Assembly (NCBI GenBank): GCA_002792535.1
Contig: PFOM01000021.1
Location: forward strand, 1-41,990
Length of the DNA stretch: 41,990 bases
Origin: Candidatus Peregrinibacteria bacterium CG_4_10_14_0_2_um_filter_38_24
GTDB lineage: Bacteria > Patescibacteriota > Gracilibacteria > UBA1369 > LOWO2-01-FULL-3
Direction: 5' to 3'
The notes beneath the pieces were generated by a model. That model was given only the letters and a program-made list of their open reading frames with translations. It did no database searches and was not told where the DNA came from. This document shows, in pieces, positions 3,297 through 25,661 of this stretch. Made by a program: the position numbers and the translations under genes. Within the stretch, counting starts at the first letter, position 1. The number at the start of each line of letters is the position of its first letter.

Positions 3297-3830
3297 TTAG
3301 CTTTCAAATTTATATGCTCCGTCTGATGTGACCTGTGATGGGTCTGCTGGTGTAACGGGAGCAGGTGCCGGTTCTACGACCGGTGTGGTTGCTGGTTGTG
3401 CAACTGGTGCCGGTTCTACGACCGGTGTGGTTGCTGGTTGTGCAACTGGTGCCGGTTCTACGACCGGTGTGGTTGCGGTAGGCATTGCTGCTTTTGCGGC
3501 GTCGATTGATTCATAATTTTGCATCAATTGTGTAAGTCCAACGACTTGTAAAATGTCTAAAATGTTTGGTTTTGCTGAACAAATTGCGACTTTTCCGCCA
3601 AGTTCAGTGATTTTTCCGTATAAATCTGTCAAATATCCGATTGATTTTGAATTCATGTAGTCTAAACCTTGCATGTCGAAAATCATGCTTAACCCTTTTG
3701 GGGCATTTTCCAAGGCCTTGTAAATTCCTTGGATTTTTTCGTCAACATTGCTTTCGTCCAATTGTCCCGAAATATGGGCGACCTTAAGTGTTGGATTTAT
3801 GTTTTCTACGAGTATAGTTACTTCTGTCAT
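3297..3830 (-). CDS. STAS-domain protein (anti-sigma factor antagonist-like) with Pro/Ala/Thr repeat tail
   Basis: SMIFDMQGLDYMNSKSIGYLTDLYGKI matches the STAS core around the phosphorylatable Ser. C-terminal tandem VVEPAPVAQPATTP repeats. Confidence 0.85.
   Translation of the reverse strand: MTEVTILVENINPTLKVAHISGQLDESNVDEKIQGIYKALENAPKGLSMIFDMQGLDYMNSKSIGYLTDLYGKITELGGKVAICSAKPNILDILQVVGLTQLMQNYESIDAAKAAMPTATTPVVEPAPVAQPATTPVVEPAPVAQPATTPVVEPAPAPVTPADPSQVTSDGAYKFES
3364..3476. repeat. 42-bp perfect tandem repeat, ~2.7 copies, inside STAS gene
   Basis: Unit ggtgccggttctacgaccggtgtggttgctggttgtgcaact at 3364-3405 and 3406-3447, partial copy 3448-3476. Confidence 0.97.
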
Positions 3831-3841
3831 TCTTTTAATTG

Positions 3842-4351
3842 TTATGAATTAAGTACTATGGTTTCTGCTTTTTGAGGTAATCCTGATTTAAATCGAGGAT
3901 CTTTCAGAAATTTTTTAACGCTCACTCTTAGTCCTCCTTCCGCTCTGTCTTCAAATTTGATTTCGTCGCTCCATTCTCCGATGATTTTTACAAGTCCACG
4001 ACCTCTGATTCCTGTGAATTGATAGGCCGGTTCTCTTCTTTCATCGAATAATTTTTGTAGTTCTGCGGCTTTCATTCTGTTTTTTCCTGTTCCTGTGTCT
4101 TCGACGTCTATTTCTAGATAGTCATCTTTTGCATACATGAAAGTGATCCTGATCTCGCTTCCAGGGCTTGATCCATATTCAATTGCGTTATTGCAAAGTT
4201 CATCCACAACTGATTGAAATCTAAATGCCCACTTCTCTTCGAAGTTCGTTGTATTTTTGATCATATTTAGAGTGAAGTCTCTGATTCCCGACATAAAGTA
4301 TGCATTCGTCGGTAGAGTGATCGTTATTTTGGTTTTTGTGTTGTCTTCCAT
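3842..4351 (-). CDS. RsbW/SpoIIAB-like HATPase_c serine kinase (anti-sigma type)
   Basis: FQSVVDELCNNAIEYGSS (N box), VEDTGTGKNR (G1) and IRGRGLVKII (G2-like). Confidence 0.85.
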   Translation of the reverse strand: MEDNTKTKITITLPTNAYFMSGIRDFTLNMIKNTTNFEEKWAFRFQSVVDELCNNAIEYGSSPGSEIRITFMYAKDDYLEIDVEDTGTGKNRMKAAELQKLFDERREPAYQFTGIRGRGLVKIIGEWSDEIKFEDRAEGGLRVSVKKFLKDPRFKSGLPQKAETIVLNS

Positions 4352-12688: not shown

Positions 12689-13042
12689 ATGCAAAAACAT
12701 TTATCTTTATCGGTTGAAAAAATTGGAGAGACTGGAGATGTCTTGGTTAAATTTAATGGTGAATTCGATAAGGCTGGACATGATGAAATAAAGGAAGAAC
12801 TTGGAAAGGTTGTAGATGATTTTAAAGGTATGACTCTTGTTTTTGACCTAACTGATTTGAAATTCATCAATAGTGAAGGTATCGGATATTTTATGGAAAT
12901 TCGTACACATCTTGTCACTGATGGCAAAAAGCTCGTACTTGTTGCGGCAAATGCTCACGTTGCGGATGTATTTAATGCGATTGGAATAATGGAAATCATG
13001 CCTATATTTAACACTTTGAGTGATTATATAAATAAAAAATAA
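12689..13042 (+). CDS. STAS-domain anti-sigma factor antagonist-like protein
   Basis: LVFDLTDLKFINSEGIGYFMEIRTHLVTDGKKLVLVAA. Confidence 0.88.
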   Translation: MQKHLSLSVEKIGETGDVLVKFNGEFDKAGHDEIKEELGKVVDDFKGMTLVFDLTDLKFINSEGIGYFMEIRTHLVTDGKKLVLVAANAHVADVFNAIGIMEIMPIFNTLSDYINKK

Positions 13043-14187
13043 TGAAGTTTATCGATAAGAGTATAACTAGGAAATTTATTTTTAACCTCGTAATTTTGGG
13101 GCTTGTGGTCGCTGGAATTGCAGGATATTTTTTGTTTTTCAAGGACATGAAAACTGTTTCTTTGACTCTTGTGCTTGTTGGAGTTGTTGTGATTTTGGTC
13201 TTGGTTGGAGTTTTTGTTTATTTGAATATTTCAAAACCTTTGAGTTCTGTTCTTTTTCAAGTACAGGCTTTACTTACGGGGAAACCTTATAAGAAAATTT
13301 ATACTGACAGGCTTGACGAAATCGGGGTGCTTGCGTATTTTTTTAATCAAGTTACGAAAGGATTCAAGGAAGTTAGTGGTGATTTGAAAGATCGTGAAAG
13401 AATGATTGATGAGCTTGATTTGGCGGCACAGCTTCAACGGGATATTTTGCCTTTGGAAAGCCCTTTTGTAGATGGTCTTCAGGTTGTTGTTAAAAATAAA
13501 CCGGCAACTGAAGTTGGTGGGGATAATTTTGATATATATACTGCGAAAGATAAAACTTATATTTATCTTGGAGATGTTACGGGGCATGGTGTTGCGGCGG
13601 GATTGATGATGACGATGGTTAATTCGCTTGCGACCGTTTTTGCGGATAGTTGTAATAATGCTTATGAAATAATGGTTAATGTGAATAAGTATATAAAAAG
13701 TCATATAAAAAAGGCTATGTTTATGACTATGGTTATGCTTTGCTTCGACAATAAAACGAAGAAATTGACGTTTGTCGGTGCGGGGCATGAGCATATTTTG
13801 ATTTACAGGCATACGACCGGAGTTGTGGAGGCAATTTTGTCAGGTGGAATTGCGCTTGGAATGCTTCCTGATAATTCGAAAGTTATAAAAGAGCGTGAAA
13901 TTATTCTTGAAGACGGAGATTTTGTTGTTTTGTATAGTGATGGAATTACTGAGGCGAGAAGCTCTACTGAGGAATTATATGGACTTGAAAGATTAAAGAC
14001 GGCCGTAAAGGAATATGCGAGCCAATATTCGGCTGAGGGGGTGAATTATCATATTGCTAAAGATGTAACTACGTTTATGGGAAGCCATAAACAGGATGAT
14101 GACATGACGTTGATTGTAATGAAACGTGATTCGAAAAATACCGCTACTGAGGCCGTGAAAGATCACAGTACTACTTGGGCGGGTTAA
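13042..14187 (+). CDS. Membrane-anchored (2 TM + HAMP-like) SpoIIE/PP2C-type serine phosphatase
   Basis: AAQLQRDILP...EVGGDNFDIYTAKDKTYIYLGDVTGHGVAAGLMM...LTFVGAGHEHILIYR...VVLYSDGITEA...DDDMTLIVMK. Confidence 0.93.
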   Translation: MKFIDKSITRKFIFNLVILGLVVAGIAGYFLFFKDMKTVSLTLVLVGVVVILVLVGVFVYLNISKPLSSVLFQVQALLTGKPYKKIYTDRLDEIGVLAYFFNQVTKGFKEVSGDLKDRERMIDELDLAAQLQRDILPLESPFVDGLQVVVKNKPATEVGGDNFDIYTAKDKTYIYLGDVTGHGVAAGLMMTMVNSLATVFADSCNNAYEIMVNVNKYIKSHIKKAMFMTMVMLCFDNKTKKLTFVGAGHEHILIYRHTTGVVEAILSGGIALGMLPDNSKVIKEREIILEDGDFVVLYSDGITEARSSTEELYGLERLKTAVKEYASQYSAEGVNYHIAKDVTTFMGSHKQDDDMTLIVMKRDSKNTATEAVKDHSTTWAG

Positions 14188-17768: not shown

Positions 17769-19175
17769 ATGAAAATTCACGATACGAAGACTGGAGAATT
17801 GGTCGAATTTGAGCCCATAAATGACGGAAAGGTCGGAATGTATGTGTGTGGACCGACTGTTTATGATTTTGGGCATTTGGGGCACGGCAGAAGCGCTGTG
17901 TGCTTCGATGTGATTCGGAGGTATTTTATTTATAAGGGGTATGATGTGAAATTTGTGTCGAATTATACTGATATTGATGACAAAATGATAAATCGTGCGA
18001 AGGAAAAAGGTATTAGTGTCGAGCAGTTGGCGAATGAGATTATTCCGGAATATGTTCGTGATTATACAGCGCTTGGAGTTATGCCTTCGGATATTTCGCC
18101 AAAAGCGACGGACAAAGACAATATTGCGGAAATGATTGATATTATTGAGAGGCTTGAGAAGAAAGGACATATCTACGTTTTGGATGACGGTGTTTATTTT
18201 GATGTAAAAACTTATAAGGAATATTGCGAATTTAGTGGACAGAAGCTTGAGGATTTGAAAGTCGGGGCGAGAGTTGACGTGAAAGAAGGCAAAAGAAATC
18301 CTTATGATTTTGTGCTTTGGAAGTTCAAAAAAGAAGGAGAACCGGCTTGGCCAAGCCGGTGGGGAGAAGGTCGTCCCGGTTGGCATATCGAATGTAGCGC
18401 TATGAGTTTTCTTCATTTGGGTGAAAAATTTGATATTCATGGAGGTGGGCTTGATCTAGTTTTTCCGCATCATGAATGTGAAGTCGCGCAATCGCTTTGT
18501 GCGTTTGGACCGGATTCGTTTGCAAAATATTGGATGCATAACGGATTTATAAATATCGACAATGAAAAAATGAGCAAAAGTTTGGGGAATTTTTTTACTT
18601 TGAGAAATGTTTTTGAAAGATATGATCCGAAAATCGTGAGATTTATGTTTTTGCAAACGCATTATAGAAATCCGATAAATTTCAGTTTTGATTTGTTGGA
18701 ACAGTCAAAGGCGGGACTCGAAAGGTTGAGAAATTTTGCGAGAAATTTGAAAGTTGGATATGAAAGCTTGTCGAAGGATGTCTATGAAGTTGGGGCTGTA
18801 AAGCTGACTGTTGACGCCAAGCATATGCAAAAAGGATTTGAGGAATTTATGGACAATGATTTTGATTTATCCGGTGCGCTTGGTGTGGTTTTTGATCTGG
18901 TTAAATCTGTGAATGGTTTACGGGATGCCAAAAAACTTACTCAAGAAGACGTAGATGAGGCTGAAAAATTTTTGAAAAATGTTGATGAAGTTTTGGATGT
19001 GATATTTGAAGAAGAGGAAGATTTAGATGGTGATGTAAAGGCTTTGATTGAAAAACGAGAAGAAGCGAGAAAATCAAAAGACTTCGCGATGTCTGATAAA
19101 ATTCGTGATGAGCTCAAGGCAAAAGGAATCGAGCTTGAGGATACGGCAGGTGGGACTATTTGGAAGAGGGTTTAA
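17769..19175 (+). CDS. cysS: Cysteinyl-tRNA synthetase
   Basis: MYVCGPTVYDFGHLGHGRSAVCFDVI, GRPGWHIECSAMS, DIHGGGLDLVFPHHECEVAQS, KMSKSLGNFFTL. Confidence 0.98.
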   Translation: MKIHDTKTGELVEFEPINDGKVGMYVCGPTVYDFGHLGHGRSAVCFDVIRRYFIYKGYDVKFVSNYTDIDDKMINRAKEKGISVEQLANEIIPEYVRDYTALGVMPSDISPKATDKDNIAEMIDIIERLEKKGHIYVLDDGVYFDVKTYKEYCEFSGQKLEDLKVGARVDVKEGKRNPYDFVLWKFKKEGEPAWPSRWGEGRPGWHIECSAMSFLHLGEKFDIHGGGLDLVFPHHECEVAQSLCAFGPDSFAKYWMHNGFINIDNEKMSKSLGNFFTLRNVFERYDPKIVRFMFLQTHYRNPINFSFDLLEQSKAGLERLRNFARNLKVGYESLSKDVYEVGAVKLTVDAKHMQKGFEEFMDNDFDLSGALGVVFDLVKSVNGLRDAKKLTQEDVDEAEKFLKNVDEVLDVIFEEEEDLDGDVKALIEKREEARKSKDFAMSDKIRDELKAKGIELEDTAGGTIWKRV

Positions 19176-19181
19176 TAATGT

Positions 19182-19451
19182 CTACTTGTTTTTTGAAAGC
19201 TTGTAGATTGCAAGGATTTCTTTTGCCGCCTTTTCGGATTTACCAGATTTTATTTGATCAACAACATGTGTGACCAAATGGTTCTGCAGAATCAAGTCCT
19301 CAACTCCGGAAAGAGCTTGCTTAACGGCTAGGGACTGCGTAATTATATCTATGCAGTATTTTTCCTCTTTTACCATGCGTTGTAGTCCCCTGATTTGGCC
19401 TTCTATAATTTTCAGACGACGTTCGGCTTTGCTTTTTATATCTTTTTTCAT
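19182..19451 (-). CDS. CsoR/RcnR (DUF156) family metal-responsive repressor, paralog 1
   Basis: RRLKIIEGQIRGLQRMVKEEKYCIDIITQSLAVKQALSGVEDLILQNHLVTHVV. The ORF track's start (TTG, 19493) lies in the putative -35 box and reads through the operator; the ATG at 19451 is the better start. Confidence 0.9.
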   Translation of the reverse strand: MKKDIKSKAERRLKIIEGQIRGLQRMVKEEKYCIDIITQSLAVKQALSGVEDLILQNHLVTHVVDQIKSGKSEKAAKEILAIYKLSKNK

Positions 19452-19463
19452 AAATTCGCGGTT

Positions 19464-19493
19464 AGAATACCCCCTAGGGGTGTTAATTGTCAA
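19464..19493 (-). promoter_or_regulatory. CsoR-type operator nested between -35 and -10 of paralog 1
   Basis: Minus strand: TTGACA (plus 19488-19493), 17-18 nt spacer containing ACACCCCTAGGGGGTA, then TATTCT. Operator core 19468-19482. Confidence 0.75.
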
Positions 19494-19501
19494 TAATAAA
19501 C

Positions 19502-20130
19502 TTATTGTGCTGGATGTCGTGGAATTGCCCTGTACCTTGAAGTAATCATTTCATTTCTGTTTCTTCCATCTTGCCAGTCAATATTTCTGAACCATACAAT
19601 CTCATTTATGGATGGTTGATAATCTTTTTCCTTTGGAATGTTATGACTAAGGTATGGGTCTTGTAAAGTAGAAATTCTGCCGTCAGATGTCCCGTAGATT
19701 TTTACGTATGCATCATCGCCTTCAACATATGATTGAATAAAAATGAAGGATGGGGTGTCGTTTGTGAAAATTAAATCCGGTCCTGTGCTAAAAACTGTAG
19801 CATCCAAGCCCTCTCCGAATTTTTTGTAATAAGTGACGTATAGGCTATGAGGTTGACGTTCAGCGATCTGTAATCCTGCAAGGAGTGCAGATCGCTAGAC
19901 CGTAGTCGAGACTTGACATAATCCGCCTCCAAGAGTTTGAATCAAATCTTTCCAGTTATTACCGAGATTCCTAAACTTTCGTATGTTGTTTTTACCTCTA
20001 CTTCACCAATTTTGAGAGAGATTTCCCTGTTTTGTTTTTCAGGTTTTTCTAAATTTTGCTGAGAATTTGCTCCCATTACGGTCAAGATAATGACAACAGC
20101 AACCGTTGCGCCAAAGATGTATTTTTTCAT
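19502..20130 (-). pseudogene. Decayed VanW-family gene (signal-anchor fragment, frameshift/internal deletion, in-frame TAG, intact C-terminal part)
   Basis: Minus-strand frame reads LIQTLGGGLCQVSTTV*RSALLAGLQIAERQPHSLYVTYYKKFGEGLDATVFSTGPDLIFTNDTPSFIFIQSYVEGDDAYVKIYGTSDGR..., a VanW core interrupted by TAG (19895-19897). The 5' piece MKKYIFGATVAVV...VEVKTTYESLGI sits in another frame. Confidence 0.75.
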
Positions 20131-20142
20131 TTTTGTTTTTTT

Positions 20143-20161
20143 GATACCCCTTAGGGGTATC
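20143..20161. promoter_or_regulatory. CsoR-type operator upstream of VanW remnant
   Basis: Perfect dyad GATACCCC-TTA-GGGGTATC, 13 nt upstream of the ATG at 20130 (minus strand). Confidence 0.8.
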
Positions 20162-20228
20162 ACTTAAGTATAATAACATATTTTTCCGTTATCGTAAGGT
20201 TTGCGAGTTGATTATTTTTTTGGGATGC

Positions 20229-20258
20229 TTGACATTACGTACCCCCTAGGGGTATTTT
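20229..20258 (+). promoter_or_regulatory. CsoR-type operator within the promoter of the metal operon
   Basis: TTGACA (20229-20234), TACCCCCTAGGGGTA (20240-20254) in the spacer, -10-like GTATTT/TATTTT (20252-20258); ATG at 20265. Confidence 0.8.
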
Positions 20259-20264
20259 GGTGTC

Positions 20265-20534
20265 ATGAATTATGCTATTAAAAAGAAAGTAATTCGTAGG
20301 CTTAAAATTATTGAAGGGCAAGTCCGGGGGCTGCGGAATATGGTTGAGAGGGAAGATTATTGTATCGATATTATCAATCAGTCGCTTGCGGCAAAAAGTG
20401 CTTTGTCCGTAGTGGAAGATTTGATGCTTGAAAATCATCTTTCTTGCCATGTTGTCGAACAAATAAAGTCCGGTAATGTTGCAAAGGCCACTAAAGAAAT
20501 TTTGAACGTCTACAAGCTTTCAAAAAATAAATAA
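20265..20534 (+). CDS. CsoR/RcnR (DUF156) family metal-responsive repressor, paralog 2
   Basis: RRLKIIEGQVRGLRNMVEREDYCIDIINQSLAAKSALSVVEDLMLENHLSCHVVEQIKSG. Confidence 0.93.
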   Translation: MNYAIKKKVIRRLKIIEGQVRGLRNMVEREDYCIDIINQSLAAKSALSVVEDLMLENHLSCHVVEQIKSGNVAKATKEILNVYKLSKNK

Positions 20535-20551
20535 TTTATAATTTCACGTAT

Positions 20552-21046
20552 ATGTCTAAGAAAATACTTTTCATTGTTGGTGCAATTGTATTGCTTGTTG
20601 TAGGTGTAGTTGTATTTAGTAATGCAAAGACTAAAGAAAATAGATTACGATTGTCGGCTCTTACGCAGGACGTTAAGGCTGTCGTTGTTGCTGATTCTAC
20701 CTGTGGATGCTGTAAGCTCTATGCTAAATATCTTGAGCAACAGGGGTTTGATGTAGATTTACAGGAAAAATCTCAGGCTGAGGTGGATGCTTATAAAAAA
20801 ACTAATAATATTCCTGATTCTTTGAAAAGTTGTCATACGACTCGCATAGGAAAATATGTTATCGAAGGCCATATTCCTATGGAAGGAATTTCAAAATTGC
20901 TTGAAGAAAAACCTGATGCGCTCGGCATTGGTATGCCTGGAATGCCTTCCAGTTCTCCTGGAATGCCTGGGCCTAAAAATATGCCTTTTATCATGAATCT
21001 TATTACTAATGACGGGCAGAAAGGTGATTTATTCTTAAAAATCTAA
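20552..21046 (+). CDS. DUF411-family (metal/copper-associated) exported protein with Met/Pro-rich tail
   Basis: N-terminal TM; VVVADSTCGCCKLYAKYLEQQGFDVDL...IPDSLKSCHTTRIGKYVIEGHIPMEGISKLL; GMPGMPSSSPGMPGP segment. Confidence 0.87.
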   Translation: MSKKILFIVGAIVLLVVGVVVFSNAKTKENRLRLSALTQDVKAVVVADSTCGCCKLYAKYLEQQGFDVDLQEKSQAEVDAYKKTNNIPDSLKSCHTTRIGKYVIEGHIPMEGISKLLEEKPDALGIGMPGMPSSSPGMPGPKNMPFIMNLITNDGQKGDLFLKI

Positions 21047-21052
21047 ATAATT

Positions 21053-21592
21053 ATGTTGAAAAAATTCTCTGCATTGTTTGCTACGGCCTTTGGAATTAAT
21101 ATTTTGTTTTCGAAAGTCGCACTTGCTCATTGTCCGCTTTGTACAATTGGGGCTGGAGCGGTTGCTGTTGGAGCGATGTGGCTGGGAGTAAGTTCTTTTT
21201 CTGTGGCTATTTTTATTGGAGCCTTTGCTATGGCAATTGGTTTGTGGATTGGGAAGTTGATAAAAAAACAGTATGTTCCGCATCAAACTTTGATAATCGG
21301 GCTGATATCTTTTGTTACAACTGTTTTTCCGCTTGAGCCTTTATTCTACGATAATACTGCGGTTTTTATCTCTCTGACAGGAGATTATGGAACTTGGTTG
21401 AATACGACTTATGTGATTGATAAATTTTTGATTGGAAGCGTTATCGGGGCGCTTATTCTCATTTTTAGTCCTAGAATCAGTAGATCTATTTCCAAGGCAA
21501 GAAAAAATAAAATGATTCATTATCAAGGAATGATTGTTACTTTTTCGACTCTCTTATTGGTAGCTTTATTTTATGAAATATTTTTGAGATGA
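21053..21592 (+). CDS. Polytopic membrane protein with N-terminal HCPLC motif
   Basis: ALAHCPLCTIGAGAVAVGAMWLGV followed by several TM helices; in-operon position; TGA stop overlaps next ATG (ATGA). Confidence 0.8.
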   Translation: MLKKFSALFATAFGINILFSKVALAHCPLCTIGAGAVAVGAMWLGVSSFSVAIFIGAFAMAIGLWIGKLIKKQYVPHQTLIIGLISFVTTVFPLEPLFYDNTAVFISLTGDYGTWLNTTYVIDKFLIGSVIGALILIFSPRISRSISKARKNKMIHYQGMIVTFSTLLLVALFYEIFLR

Positions 21593-22038
21593 ATGATTCT
21601 GTTTTTTTAATTTTTGGGTCAATTACTATATTATTTCTTTTGTTCATTATTTTTAGAGCATTTTTGAAGATAAGAGTTTGCGCTTTGTGTGCGAGTGTTG
21701 GTTTGACCTGGGTTGCATTATTGACTTTATATCGTCTAAATCTTTTCAACAATCCCCTACTTATAGCTTTATTGATTGGAAATAGCGTTGTCGGTTTGTA
21801 TTATTTGGTTGAGAAAAAAATCTCTGAGAAATTTCATGTTTTCAGATTGCCCTTTTTCTTGACTCTACTTTTGGTTGGATATTCTTTGATTGGAATTTTT
21901 GATTTTGCTGAGATTGCTTCGAGTATTGTTCTTGTTTTGGGGTTATGGGGCGTGTTTGGACTTATGTATTTCTATAGGAATAATTCGCGTTTCAAGTCAT
22001 CTGTTTCGCATATAATAGATTGTTGTAAAAATTGGTAA
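21589..22038 (+). CDS. Polytopic membrane protein with CALC motif
   Basis: FRAFLKIRVCALCASVGLTWVALL and several TM helices; 4-nt overlap with upstream gene. Confidence 0.8.
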   Translation: MNDSVFLIFGSITILFLLFIIFRAFLKIRVCALCASVGLTWVALLTLYRLNLFNNPLLIALLIGNSVVGLYYLVEKKISEKFHVFRLPFFLTLLLVGYSLIGIFDFAEIASSIVLVLGLWGVFGLMYFYRNNSRFKSSVSHIIDCCKNW

Positions 22039-22062
22039 TTTAAAATTTAACCATATTTATTT

Positions 22063-22977
22063 ATGAAAAAGAAATCTAAAAAATTCTGGAAAAAATATAG
22101 TAGACCGTTTTCTGTTGCTTTATTGGTTGTTTCTATTTTGACTTTTAATTTGTTATTTAGGGTGGAAATTTTTCTACGTTGGAATGTTTCTACTACTGAG
22201 AATACTTTTGAAAATAAAACGGCAAATTTGAAAAAGAATCTTTTTCCTGATGGAGGCAAAGAATTACCTGTAAAATGGGGAGATCTCGGCCAAAAATTGG
22301 TCGCAGATGGTGTGATCGATCAAGATCTTTTTGAGTCTATTTACGTCGAAAGAGGAGGGATGAATGAATATGAAAAAAATCTAATGTATGGTGCTGAGAA
22401 CAATAATCTAAAAATTACGGCCGAAAATGCGGGGTTTTTATTGAATGTCTTTTGGGGATTGGGCCTTTCGAATAAAAACCCCATACTTGAGAAGGGGCCG
22501 ATGCAAGATGTGCAATATGGAGGCGCAGGAAGTTTTGCTTCGACCGGTGGTTGGACTTTGGGGGTTGGAGATGCGATGAATCACTATAGTATGCATAATT
22601 TTATTCCTTTGACTGACGAACAGCAGATTTTGGTTGAGGCGGTCTCTCAAAATATTTATAGACCTTGCTGTGGCAATTCTACGTATTTTCCTGATTGCAA
22701 TCATGGAATGGCAATGCTCGGGTTTTTGGAGTTAATGGCGTCACAAAATGCTACTGAGAAGGAAATGTACGATGCGGCTTTAGCCTTAAATTCCTATTGG
22801 TTCCCGAGTAACTATCTGACTATTGCGAGTTATTTTGAAAAAGAAGGTGTGTCTTGGGGGGATGTTTCTCCGGTTGACGTTTTGGGGTTCAATTATTCAA
22901 GCTCTGTAGGCTTCAGGCAAGTTCTTTCTCAGGTTAATCCAGTACAGACGCAAGGTGGCTCAGGATGCTCGGTTTAG
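22063..22977 (+). CDS. Membrane-anchored extracytoplasmic protein with CC-x8-C-x-HGMAM putative metal motif
   Basis: N-terminal TM; YRPCCGNSTYFPDCNHGMAMLGFLELMASQ; last gene of metal-island operon; no family recognised. Confidence 0.75.
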   Translation: MKKKSKKFWKKYSRPFSVALLVVSILTFNLLFRVEIFLRWNVSTTENTFENKTANLKKNLFPDGGKELPVKWGDLGQKLVADGVIDQDLFESIYVERGGMNEYEKNLMYGAENNNLKITAENAGFLLNVFWGLGLSNKNPILEKGPMQDVQYGGAGSFASTGGWTLGVGDAMNHYSMHNFIPLTDEQQILVEAVSQNIYRPCCGNSTYFPDCNHGMAMLGFLELMASQNATEKEMYDAALALNSYWFPSNYLTIASYFEKEGVSWGDVSPVDVLGFNYSSSVGFRQVLSQVNPVQTQGGSGCSV

Positions 22978-23062
22978 TGGGCTTGTATATTGTTTACTGA
23001 CTGAAAATGACAAAAAGCGGAGGATAAATTGATTTAAAAGTGGTTTATTTTGTTGTTCCGTG

Positions 23063-23091
23063 TTGACGAAGGCGAGGTATTGACTTATAAT
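23063..23091 (+). promoter_or_regulatory. Sigma70-type promoter upstream of 23129 gene
   Basis: TTGACG (23063-23068), 17-bp spacer, TATAAT (23086-23091). Confidence 0.7.
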
Positions 23092-23128
23092 TATACATTA
23101 AGTTTAGTTTTTATTTAATCTTAATTAA

Positions 23129-24133
23129 ATGTCTCAGACTGATCTTGTGCAGGAAGATGTAACCGTTTCAACTTTGAACCCTGAAAATGTTGACCAAAGG
23201 TTGTTTGCTGAGATTTTTGATGGTATTGGTCGAGGAATCGAGGAGTTGAAAGCTAATTCACTGGTTCGACTTAATTCTGAAAATCTAAAGAAGTTGAGCG
23301 AATTAGATAAGGTTTATTTTCTTTTAGCTCCTGAATTGGCCAAGTATTTGGAGGAGAATCCCGAGGCTATTTCTGCAAATAATGATGTGATTAAAAATTG
23401 CTTTTCGCGTTTGGGCGAAAAATTTCCTTGGAGAAGTGAATTACAAGATTTAGGGGATTTCCATGAATTTGGTATTCTTTCTGAAAATGATGTTTTTTTA
23501 GGAAATTTTCATCTAGTGCCTTATTGGGCGTCTGGGGGGGAAAGTTATACGGCTATTGATTTAGTTGTGTATTTGCACGAGGGGCAGGTCAAAACTAAGC
23601 CGATGGCTAAAAAGGCTATTACCGTTGGGAGTGCTGATCTTGTTGTAAAATCTCATCTTTCTCGGTTAGCGGATTTGGAGCAAAGAGGTATTAAGATTGC
23701 TAAAAATTATGGCGAAAGAGGTGCAGTGATTTTTCAGGACTTGTATCATGATTCCATGCGGCAGGTTATTGAGGCGATAAAGGTCGATCCTATTGCAAAT
23801 AAAGGTTTGTTAGATGGATTAGTGCGTATAGCTTATGTTTTAGATAGTAGCGGCTATGATACTATGAAATTTTTAGATGACATGATTTTTGATGGGCAAA
23901 ATTTTAGATATGTTGATGGTGGACATGATTTGGGAGATAGGCGTGATAAGTCAATTCCTCTAAGTCCATTTCTACGCAGTGTTATTAAGGAATTTCCAGC
24001 TCTAAGCTATCTTACCCAAAAGTTTCCAGATGCGGAAGCTTTGATTAGAGAGTCTTATGGTCAACTTTCTGAATCTGAAGTGGATTCGACTGTGGAGGAT
24101 GTTGCTTATAAAGTTTCTTCTTCTTCTCTGTAG
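23129..24133 (+). CDS. Putative divergent kinase-like-fold protein
   Basis: KPMAKKAIT..., GAVIFQDLYHDS hinge-like segment, LLDGLVRIAYVLDSSGYDTMKFLDDMIFDGQNFRYVDGGHDLGD. By eye it aligns with the C-terminal half of the adjacent 24141-25661 protein. Confidence 0.5.
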   Translation: MSQTDLVQEDVTVSTLNPENVDQRLFAEIFDGIGRGIEELKANSLVRLNSENLKKLSELDKVYFLLAPELAKYLEENPEAISANNDVIKNCFSRLGEKFPWRSELQDLGDFHEFGILSENDVFLGNFHLVPYWASGGESYTAIDLVVYLHEGQVKTKPMAKKAITVGSADLVVKSHLSRLADLEQRGIKIAKNYGERGAVIFQDLYHDSMRQVIEAIKVDPIANKGLLDGLVRIAYVLDSSGYDTMKFLDDMIFDGQNFRYVDGGHDLGDRRDKSIPLSPFLRSVIKEFPALSYLTQKFPDAEALIRESYGQLSESEVDSTVEDVAYKVSSSSL

Positions 24134-24140
24134 TTGTATT

Positions 24141-25661
24141 TTAATTTGGTATGCGTTTCTTGGCTGCTATGTTTATACTGTGTTTGTTGTATCTTTTTCG
24201 TATTTCGCTGGATAGTTTTGGGTCGTCTCCAAACTTTTGTAGTAAGTCTGCAAGACCTGTGCTTATTTTATTTTCAGATGCGGATTCGATGTTCACACTA
24301 CTGCTTCCGAAGTATATCCATCGTTTGCCATTGTAAAGAAAATTCTCAACGATATTTCTTGATTTTATTCCTTCTGCATCCATTAATGCTGCGGCATAAA
24401 TTAATCCGTCGAGAATGTCGCATCTTTTTCTGACGTCGAAATCAGAATTATTTGCTACACTTAGTACTGTAGCATTACTTGATGGTACATATTCTCTTAA
24501 TAGCGCTGGTGCTCCTTCGTTGTCCGTTGTTGTGCCATACATTTTAGGAGTCCCTGTCTTTAGTCTTGATAAGTGTCGTGTCGGATTTGCTCTTCTTAGT
24601 AGTTTTTCAAATGATTTTGTGCGATTTACTTCTCCTTCAGCTAAAGCTTTATTTATGCCTCCTTCCGTCGTCTCTTCATTGTCAAATGATTTTACTAGAA
24701 ATCTTCTGTGGATTTGTTTACCTTTTTTGTCTATAAGTGAAACAATATATGCTGTGAATGAAGATCCTATGTAACTGATTTTTTGTTTTGGAATGAATTT
24801 TTCTATTGCAAGGAATACTTCTCCGTCTTCCAATATGCCGTTTGCTCTTATTGTTTCCTCTGACATAAATTTGTCCCCTGTTTCGTGAATTTCTAGCATT
24901 TTATCTACCTTTTTACTCATCCATCCTGCTTCGTATTTGATTGCTTCAACTTTTTTCTCCGGTGTGTCTTCGTTGCTACCGTGGCCGACATTTCCTCTTA
25001 TGTCCCAACCATATCTTCCACGAATTGTTTGCCCTGTTGTGTCCTTATCCGGCATTGTAGGTCCAAGTTGTCTTCTCCATTCATCTACGGCTCCTCCTTG
25101 CTCTGAATAAAGAAGTACCATTGTTGTGGCGCCACTTGTCATATATTTTTCGAAACGAGCCCATGCGGTCGTTTTTCCGTTTGTTTCAGCATCCGGCTTT
25201 GCGCTTAACATATCGTAAATACTCGCATAGAAATATTTGACATCACTCGGGGTCATATGTGTAGGCAACGCAAAAAGAACTCTTAATGGAGGTAAAATTT
25301 CTTCACGTATGATTTTGCTTGCTATTGTGCTGTCACTTGATTCACTTTTTCCTTTATGAACTTGTGGTTTAATTAAAGCGACTGTGATTTTTTCTGCTTC
25401 TATTAATTCTTGTAGTTTTGGATTTTTTAAAAGCTGAGATACGAGTCTGACTCTTTCTTTTTCTCTTTCGTGCAGTTGCACTGCATTACATTCAGGGTCT
25501 GTTGTTAATCCTTCCTCTTTTGCAAAATCGTCAGGCCGTACATCACAAAGTCTTGCATTTATGTTTTCACGGCAATGATACGGAGTTGAGATAACCGGAG
25601 AAAGTGTCAAATCTTCCGGAAAGTCCTTTATGTCTTCTGGTAAAGATTCTTTTGTATACAT
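24141..25661 (-). CDS. Nucleoside diphosphate kinase domain fused to a C-terminal kinase-like domain
   Basis: KITVALIKPQ...YFYASI...FEKYMTSGATTMVLLYSEQGGAVDEWRRQLGPTMPDKDTTGQTIRGRYGWDIRGNVGHGSNED is an NDK signature (aa ~91-240). C-terminal half resembles the 23129 protein. Confidence 0.8.
   Translation of the reverse strand: MYTKESLPEDIKDFPEDLTLSPVISTPYHCRENINARLCDVRPDDFAKEEGLTTDPECNAVQLHEREKERVRLVSQLLKNPKLQELIEAEKITVALIKPQVHKGKSESSDSTIASKIIREEILPPLRVLFALPTHMTPSDVKYFYASIYDMLSAKPDAETNGKTTAWARFEKYMTSGATTMVLLYSEQGGAVDEWRRQLGPTMPDKDTTGQTIRGRYGWDIRGNVGHGSNEDTPEKKVEAIKYEAGWMSKKVDKMLEIHETGDKFMSEETIRANGILEDGEVFLAIEKFIPKQKISYIGSSFTAYIVSLIDKKGKQIHRRFLVKSFDNEETTEGGINKALAEGEVNRTKSFEKLLRRANPTRHLSRLKTGTPKMYGTTTDNEGAPALLREYVPSSNATVLSVANNSDFDVRKRCDILDGLIYAAALMDAEGIKSRNIVENFLYNGKRWIYFGSSSVNIESASENKISTGLADLLQKFGDDPKLSSEIRKRYNKHSINIAAKKRIPN

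What the first reader, a model, noticed from the sequence alone, without database searches (positions are those of the whole stretch)
23129..25661. Convergent pair sharing a divergent kinase-like domain, one possibly a pseudokinase
By eye, 23129 protein segments VFLGNFHLVPYWASGGESYTAIDLVVY, the GAVIFQDLYHDS hinge-like segment and LLDGLVRIAYVLDSSGYDTMKFLDDMIFDGQNFRYVDGGHDLGD align with VFLAIEKFIPKQKISYIGSSFTAYIVSLI, PALLREYVPSSN and ILDGLIYAAALMDAEGIKSRNIVENFLYNGKRWIYFGSSSVNI of the NDK fusion. The DGG (DFG-like) Asp in one is replaced by GSS in the other. The genes face each other, 7 nt apart. Inference: an active kinase/pseudokinase pair coupled to an NDK, possibly a signalling or conflict system.
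Basis: partly seen in the sequence, partly recalled or inferred. Interest (0 to 1): 0.7.

Follow-up and report, generated by a model that had tools for sequence, protein, structure and literature searches.

The report
NDK gene with swappable partner gene
Two facing genes in an uncultured Peregrinibacteria-like genome share a divergent kinase-like domain, and relatives show that a divergent nucleoside diphosphate kinase gene there is paired with a partner gene that is exchanged between genomes, a pattern expected of effector or conflict genes but not yet tied to a tested function.

Summary
The 334-aa protein (23129-24133 +) and the C-terminal domain of the NDK fusion (24141-25661 -) are homologous: hhalign score 39.1 against at most 20.0 in 400 shuffles. 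A low-confidence AF2 model of the 334-aa protein has kinase topology, and all 50 listed Foldseek hits are kinase-superfamily. The beta3 Lys is kept in 7 of 7 relatives, the DFG-like Asp in 3 of 3 stand-alone proteins and 0 of 4 fusion domains. 'Active kinase' is not supported: the HRD Asp is missing in 7 of 7. The fusion domain is a pseudokinase by sequence, under purifying selection. The NDK part keeps its catalytic residues.

Beyond the finding: a divergent NDK anchors a variable slot. Of 195 relatives, all 6 with a full-length divergent NDK carry beside it one of three unrelated orphan families, found nowhere else in that set: kinase-like, or two that look ADP-ribosyltransferase-like by eye only. 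Flanking DNA stays 76-82% identical to the gene edges. A stand-alone kinase-like gene in a third family also adjoins an NDK. Mechanism remains inferred.

The parts
23129..24133 (+). Stand-alone kinase-like protein, 334 aa
   Evidence: ORF; relatives in G081 (33% over 64-308, E 5.6e-29) and G292 (E 1.4e-26)
23438..24007 (+). Kinase-like core shared with the fusion C-terminal domain
   Evidence: alignments A6/A7; hhalign; AF2 strands/helices in kinase order
23612..23614 (+). Lys162, beta3 (VAIK-type) lysine candidate; lies in predicted strand 153-164
   Evidence: invariant in 7 of 7; strand position
23879..23881 (+). Asp251, at the place of the catalytic-loop metal-binding Asn; just before predicted strand 252-254
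   Evidence: Asp in 3 of 3 stand-alone, Asn in 4 of 4 fusion domains
23915..23917 (+). Asp263, DFG-like Asp; just after predicted strand 259-261
   Evidence: 3 of 3 stand-alone, 0 of 4 fusion domains
24134..24140 (.). 7-nt gap between the two facing stop codons
   Evidence: coordinates
24141..25661 (-). NDK-pseudokinase fusion protein, 506 aa
   Evidence: ORF; orthologues in G001, G002, G003 at 63-84% identity
24897..25394 (-). Divergent NDK domain (about residues 90-255) with catalytic residues kept
   Evidence: Pfam NDK E 2e-10; alignment with the genome's ordinary NDK; VIA-align Z up to 11.3
24981..24983 (-). His227, phospho-histidine of the NDK active site (NVGHGS)
   Evidence: alignment
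24180..24857 (-). C-terminal pseudokinase-like domain of the fusion (residues 269-494)
24690..24692 (-). Lys324, beta3 lysine of the fusion domain
   Evidence: alignment
24306..24308 (-). Gly452, start of GSS where the DFG-like Asp is lost
   Evidence: alignment
19175..24138 (.). Variable interval between cysS and the NDK fusion: 5 kb here, about 0.63 kb in G003
   Evidence: blastn of G003 and G000 loci

Best explanation
The two genes are this genome's version of a small accessory module of Peregrinibacteria: a divergent, probably active NDK that anchors a neighbouring slot whose gene is exchanged between genomes. Slot genes are a kinase-fold protein (here the 334-aa protein; also G081 and, beside an ordinary-looking NDK, G292) or one of two other orphan families that look like ADP-ribosyltransferases by eye. 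In the window's genus the NDK also carries a C-terminal copy of the kinase-like domain, most simply from fusion of an NDK-kinase operon such as G081's, followed by loss of the DFG-like Asp. Shown: homology of the two kinase-like domains, residue losses, NDK active-site residues, gene swapping, purifying selection on the fusion domain. Inferred: the slot proteins are nucleotide-using effectors acting on a target in a rival, host or invading element; the NDK(-pseudokinase) is their fixed partner, supplying or gating nucleotide or holding the effector in check. Lacking the HRD Asp, the 334-aa protein would then be either an unorthodox transferase or a nucleotide-binding regulator.
For: Homology beyond 400 shuffles. 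Kinase order of elements, with Lys162 in the third strand, Asp251 before and Asp263 after the late hairpin; 50 of 50 listed Foldseek PDB hits are kinase-superfamily, as are 16 of the first 20 BFVD hits by description. NDK catalytic Lys, Arg, Asn, His kept in 6 of 6 full-length divergent NDKs. In 195 relatives, 6 of 6 genomes with a full-length divergent NDK carry a slot family next to it, and none of the other 189 gave a full-length match to a slot family (a short hit in G027 over residues 20-85 was not opened). G053 and G081 (one genus) are 76% identical up to and including the slot start codon and 82% from its end onward, yet hold unrelated slot genes. Third-family adjacency in G292, 40 nt apart. 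dN/dS about 0.07 (NDK) and 0.12 (C-terminal domain), G000 against G003.
Against: No activity, target, secretion signal or immunity partner is known. The model of the 334-aa protein is poor (pLDDT 50.8, pTM 0.49), no Foldseek E is below 0.001 and VIA-align Z peaks at 5.8, a level the tool says can be chance. The C-terminal domain of the fusion was modelled at pLDDT 21-49 (10-residue blocks). In the window the slot gene faces the NDK instead of following it, next to copper-type genes, so it could have its own business. G016 has a truncated NDK-like protein without the His and no known slot gene. G292's NDK is an ordinary one, on the other strand. The relatives are few: two genera with the full-length divergent NDK.
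Confidence: 0.45

Rival explanations
1. Toxin and antidote: the slot gene is the toxin and the NDK (or NDK-pseudokinase) neutralises it, either by binding it or by undoing its nucleotide-based modification.
For: Adjacent pair, fixed partner with exchanged partner; a degenerate copy of the same fold in the fixed partner would suit binding of the kinase-like slot protein.
Against: One NDK would have to counter three unrelated slot families; in the window the two genes face each other, unlike a classical operon; no PADLOC or NCBIfam match.
Confidence: 0.2
2. The 334-aa protein is a SelO-like or NiRAN-like nucleotidyl transferase (kinase fold, HRD Asp missing, metal Asp residues and Lys kept) fed with NTP by the NDK.
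For: HRD Asp absent in 3 of 3 while Lys162, Asp251 and Asp263 are kept; passages of PMC8097203 state that SelO lacks the HRD Asp, keeps a kinase fold and transfers AMP from a flipped ATP. A partner supplying NTPs would fit. NiRAN is named from recall.
Against: No sequence match to any such family; the residues that hold the flipped nucleotide in SelO were not compared here; the fold model is too poor to place ATP.
Confidence: 0.15
3. Housekeeping: a second NDK plus nucleotide-binding regulators in nucleotide balance or signalling; neighbours are coincidental.
For: NDK catalytic residues intact; strong purifying selection; same chromosomal place near cysS in four congeneric genomes.
Against: The genome already has an ordinary NDK at C2; slot genes of unrelated type are exchanged exactly beside the NDK; patchy occurrence, 6 of 195 full-length.
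Confidence: 0.15
4. The kinase reading is wrong: two homologous domains of another alpha/beta fold.
For: Model confidence low; no family match at all.
Against: Element order, residue placement and the uniform kinase-superfamily hit list.
Confidence: 0.15

Closest known systems
Nucleoside diphosphate kinase (Pfam PF00334)
   Same: Match above Pfam cut-off (41.1 against 27 bits), active-site Lys, Arg, Asn, His kept, NDK fold by VIA-align Z 9-11
   Different: Longer loops, N-terminal extension, C-terminal kinase-like domain; the genome has a separate ordinary NDK
Protein kinase-like superfamily (RIO1, Bud32, APH, PI3K, Tyr/Ser/Thr kinases)
   Same: Predicted order of strands and helices, Lys in third strand, DFG-like Asp in the stand-alone protein
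   Different: No HRD Asp, no detectable sequence similarity to any Pfam kinase family or PDB kinase chain
SelO AMPylase (pseudokinase)
   Same: HRD Asp lost while the beta3 Lys and a DFG-like Asp are retained (SelO from passages of PMC8097203)
   Different: No sequence relation found; SelO-specific residues not compared
Polymorphic toxin / exchangeable effector systems
   Same: A constant gene with unrelated partner genes exchanged beside it
   Different: No delivery domain or immunity gene identified; the anchor is an NDK

Membership tests
Nucleoside diphosphate kinase | Profile match over curated cut-off | tested here: met
   41.1 bits, cut-off 27
Nucleoside diphosphate kinase | Catalytic His in N-x-x-H-G-S and phosphate-binding Lys/Arg residues | tested here: met
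   Aligned in W506, G001-G003, G053, G081; absent in truncated G016
Nucleoside diphosphate kinase | Phosphate transfer between nucleotides | not testable with these tools
   needs assay
Protein kinase-like fold (334-aa protein) | Bilobal kinase fold | tested here: inconclusive
   pTM 0.49; 50 of 50 listed hits kinases, but no E below 0.001 and Z at most 5.8
Active protein kinase (334-aa protein) | HRD catalytic Asp | tested here: not met
   absent in 3 of 3 stand-alone and 4 of 4 fusion domains
Active protein kinase (334-aa protein) | VAIK Lys and DFG Asp | tested here: met
   Lys162 and Asp263 conserved in 3 of 3
Pseudokinase (fusion C-terminal domain) | Kinase-related domain with lost catalytic motifs but kept under selection | tested here: met
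   homology, DFG-like Asp lost in 4 of 4, dN 0.084, dS 0.71 G000-G003; rests on the kinase reading of the relative
SelO | Sequence relation and nucleotide-flipping residues | not tested
   no family hit in Pfam or NCBIfam; residues not compared
ADP-ribosyltransferase (other slot genes) | ART profile or fold | tested here: inconclusive
   no Pfam, NCBIfam or PDB sequence match; resemblance is by eye and from recall; fold not predicted
Known anti-phage defence systems | PADLOC model match | tested here: not met
   9 proteins scanned, best E 0.016 for one, none convincing

The most novel reading that the evidence does not exclude
An NDK-anchored effector-exchange module of CPR bacteria: a divergent NDK feeds or controls interchangeable nucleotide-transferring effectors (a new HRD-less kinase-fold family, and ADP-ribosyltransferase-like enzymes), and in one genus the NDK has absorbed and disabled a copy of the kinase effector to control its own partner.
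Probability: 0.2. Interest if true: 0.78.

Novelty: new variant of a known kind. Interest (0 to 1): 0.55.

Why it matters
If right, it adds an orphan HRD-less kinase-fold family, an NDK-pseudokinase architecture, and a case in a reduced-genome lineage where a metabolic enzyme is the constant member of an exchangeable effector pair. It gives a compact, testable system for asking how NDK and pseudokinase domains control nucleotide-using effectors in bacteria thought to live attached to other cells.

Tried and rejected
Pfam, NCBIfam, PHROGs and PADLOC scans gave nothing convincing beyond NDK; weak hits such as NanE (E 0.11) were judged chance. PDB sequence searches with profiles of the kinase-like and other slot families gave only weak unrelated matches or none. 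Viral contig scans and plasmid/phage tblastn found none; the one phage match (E 0.2) lies in an 897-aa ORF that reads like a carbohydrate esterase by eye and was dropped. The phylum search (379 genomes) outside the genus gave four weak hits; the three whose ORFs I read are EF-Ts and two DnaB-like proteins by eye; the fourth (L070) was not opened. Weak matches to residues 20-85 were dropped: those in G000 C36 and G003 C72 lie in glycosyltransferase-like ORFs by eye; that in G027 was not opened. Homology between the two other slot families was tested and not found except a shared C-terminal tail. Alignments of pieces of the fusion with the stand-alone proteins were too poor to use for modelling. 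Fic, HipA and other folds were not in the structural hit lists shown; that absence is not evidence against them. Literature: searches for Peregrinibacteria with NDK (none), CPR with polymorphic toxin and ART (two listed), and two wider NDK/toxin searches listed no paper whose title or abstract start describes this pair; PMC8097203 and PMC7159879 were seen as passages only.

Full report
Observation. The window holds a 334-aa ORF (23129-24133 +) and a 506-aa ORF (24141-25661 -) whose stops lie 7 nt apart. The 506-aa protein has a Pfam NDK match (E 2e-10) and no other family; the 334-aa protein has none that is convincing. BLASTP between them gives 35 aligned residues at E 3e-4. With relatives added (G081, G292 for the stand-alone type; G001, G002, G003 for the fusion), hhalign aligns 178 columns at score 39.1. 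The controls are far lower: reversed 15.2, best of 200 column shuffles 19.8, best of 200 block shuffles 20.0.

Kinase reading. AF2 with a two-sequence alignment gave a poor model of the 334-aa protein (pLDDT 50.8, pTM 0.49), but its order of elements is strands 122-130, 140-150, 153-164, helix 170-185, strand 199-204, helices 210-219 and 225-240, strands 252-254 and 259-261, the order of a kinase fold. Lys162, invariant in 7 of 7 relatives, lies in the third strand; Asp251 precedes and Asp263 follows the late hairpin, where a kinase has its Asn and its DFG Asp (the template is recalled knowledge). Foldseek against PDB listed 50 of 606 matches, all 50 kinase-superfamily, best E 7.9e-3, low TM. 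VIA-align 2 peaked at Z 5.8 with RIO1, rmsd 6.0, 174 aligned, below the level the tool treats as telling; this second look draws on the same Foldseek list. BFVD gave 16 of the first 20 hits described as kinases. I read this as probable, not proven.

Active or pseudo. In the stand-alone group (3 proteins) Lys162, Asp251 and Asp263 are invariant; in the fusion group (4 proteins) the Lys and an Asn at the Asp251 place are kept, and Asp263 is lost. No member of either group has an Asp at the HRD place, by my alignment of the loop to the kinase pattern. So the 334-aa protein is not an ordinary kinase by sequence; it could be an unorthodox transferase as SelO is (passages of PMC8097203) or a nucleotide-binding regulator. 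The fusion domain is a pseudokinase by the same standard, but not a decaying one: G000 against G003 gives dN 0.084 and dS 0.71 over 240 codons, next to 0.067 and 0.99 for the NDK part. Synonymous differences against G001 and G002 are near saturation and were not used.

NDK. The divergent NDKs of W506, G001, G002, G003, G053 and G081 keep the active-site Lys, Arg, Asn and His; G016 has a truncated relative without the His region. The window's genome has a second, ordinary NDK on contig C2, so the fusion is not the only NDK.

Neighbourhoods. In the same genus, G003 and G001 have the fusion followed on the same strand by a 206/227-aa orphan, G002 by an unrelated 246-aa orphan, then convergent cysS in G003 and G002 (an inserted gene lies between in G001). 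In another family, G053 and G081 have a separate NDK followed by a 217-aa orphan related to that of G002, or by a 332-aa relative of the window's 334-aa protein. In 195 relatives each slot family was seen only there: kinase-like full match in G000 and G081 (the weaker hits of that call are G002's fusion domain and short hits in G003 and G027), 246-aa type in G002 and G053, 206-aa type in G001 and G003. A full-length divergent NDK occurs in 6 of 195, and all 6 have a slot gene. Of the other 3 of the 9 genomes hit, G016 carries the truncated NDK and no slot family, and the weak hits in G107 and G131 are not of the divergent class by score. The six genomes are only two genera, so they are not six independent cases.

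Gene swapping. G053 and G081 are 76% identical up to position 2110 of L019, the slot gene's ATG, and 82% from 2758, the end of the slot gene, where the convergent PAP2 gene ends; between lie unrelated genes. G003 and G000 are 82% identical to just past the fusion's stop and 77% from the cysS end; G000 has about 5 kb between, with two CsoR-type repressors, a DUF411 protein, unnamed ORFs and the inverted 334-aa gene. The slot genes of G003 and G002, otherwise unrelated, share a C-terminal tail that also matches at DNA level.

Independent adjacency. A profile of the stand-alone type searched in 353 class genomes hit only G000, G081 and G292. In G292 (a third family) the 267-aa gene lies 40 nt from, and divergent to, a 139-aa NDK-type gene that is one of two NDK hits in that genome. 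The one named record reached, JAPLYO010000022.1, the same contig as G081's by length, is titled Candidatus Peregrinibacteria; since G081 is of the same order, the window is probably of that group.

Mechanism. Shown: homology, residue losses, NDK residues, swapping, selection. Inferred: slot proteins are effectors or sensors that use nucleotides; the NDK is their constant partner; the fusion arose from an NDK-kinase operon. The ART label for two slot families is by eye and from recall; all profile searches were negative. No biochemical role has been tested.

Verdict.

Noticed in passing
L019 2040-2130 and the same region of L020 (G081): A TATAAT box lies a few bases before the slot gene ATG in both G053 and G081, as if the swapped genes are read from a conserved promoter with almost no leader.
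   Followed up: no
L019 1-1365, L020 10140-11202, L077 1-3000: In this genus the NDK pair sits just after a tRNA-Trp gene; in G060 the same place holds an AAA_14/DUF4143 ATPase and the upstream orphan gene is broken, so it looks like an insertion hotspot.
   Followed up: partly
L016 5588-5615, L018 10316-10346: Unrelated slot genes of G003 and G002 end in nearly the same peptide tail, with mostly synonymous DNA differences; either a leftover of replacement or a shared C-terminal signal.
   Followed up: partly
window 19182-22977: Two CsoR-type repressors (one per strand), a DUF411 protein and unnamed ORFs lie between cysS and the 334-aa gene, an island absent from the same place in the three congeners.
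   Followed up: partly
L021 6894-8761: G016 has a truncated NDK-like protein without the catalytic His facing a 396-aa low-complexity ORF.
   Followed up: no
window 3297-4351 and 13042-14187: ORFs that read by eye like a STAS antagonist, a HATPase anti-sigma factor and a SpoIIE-type phosphatase, a possible partner-switching set.
   Followed up: no
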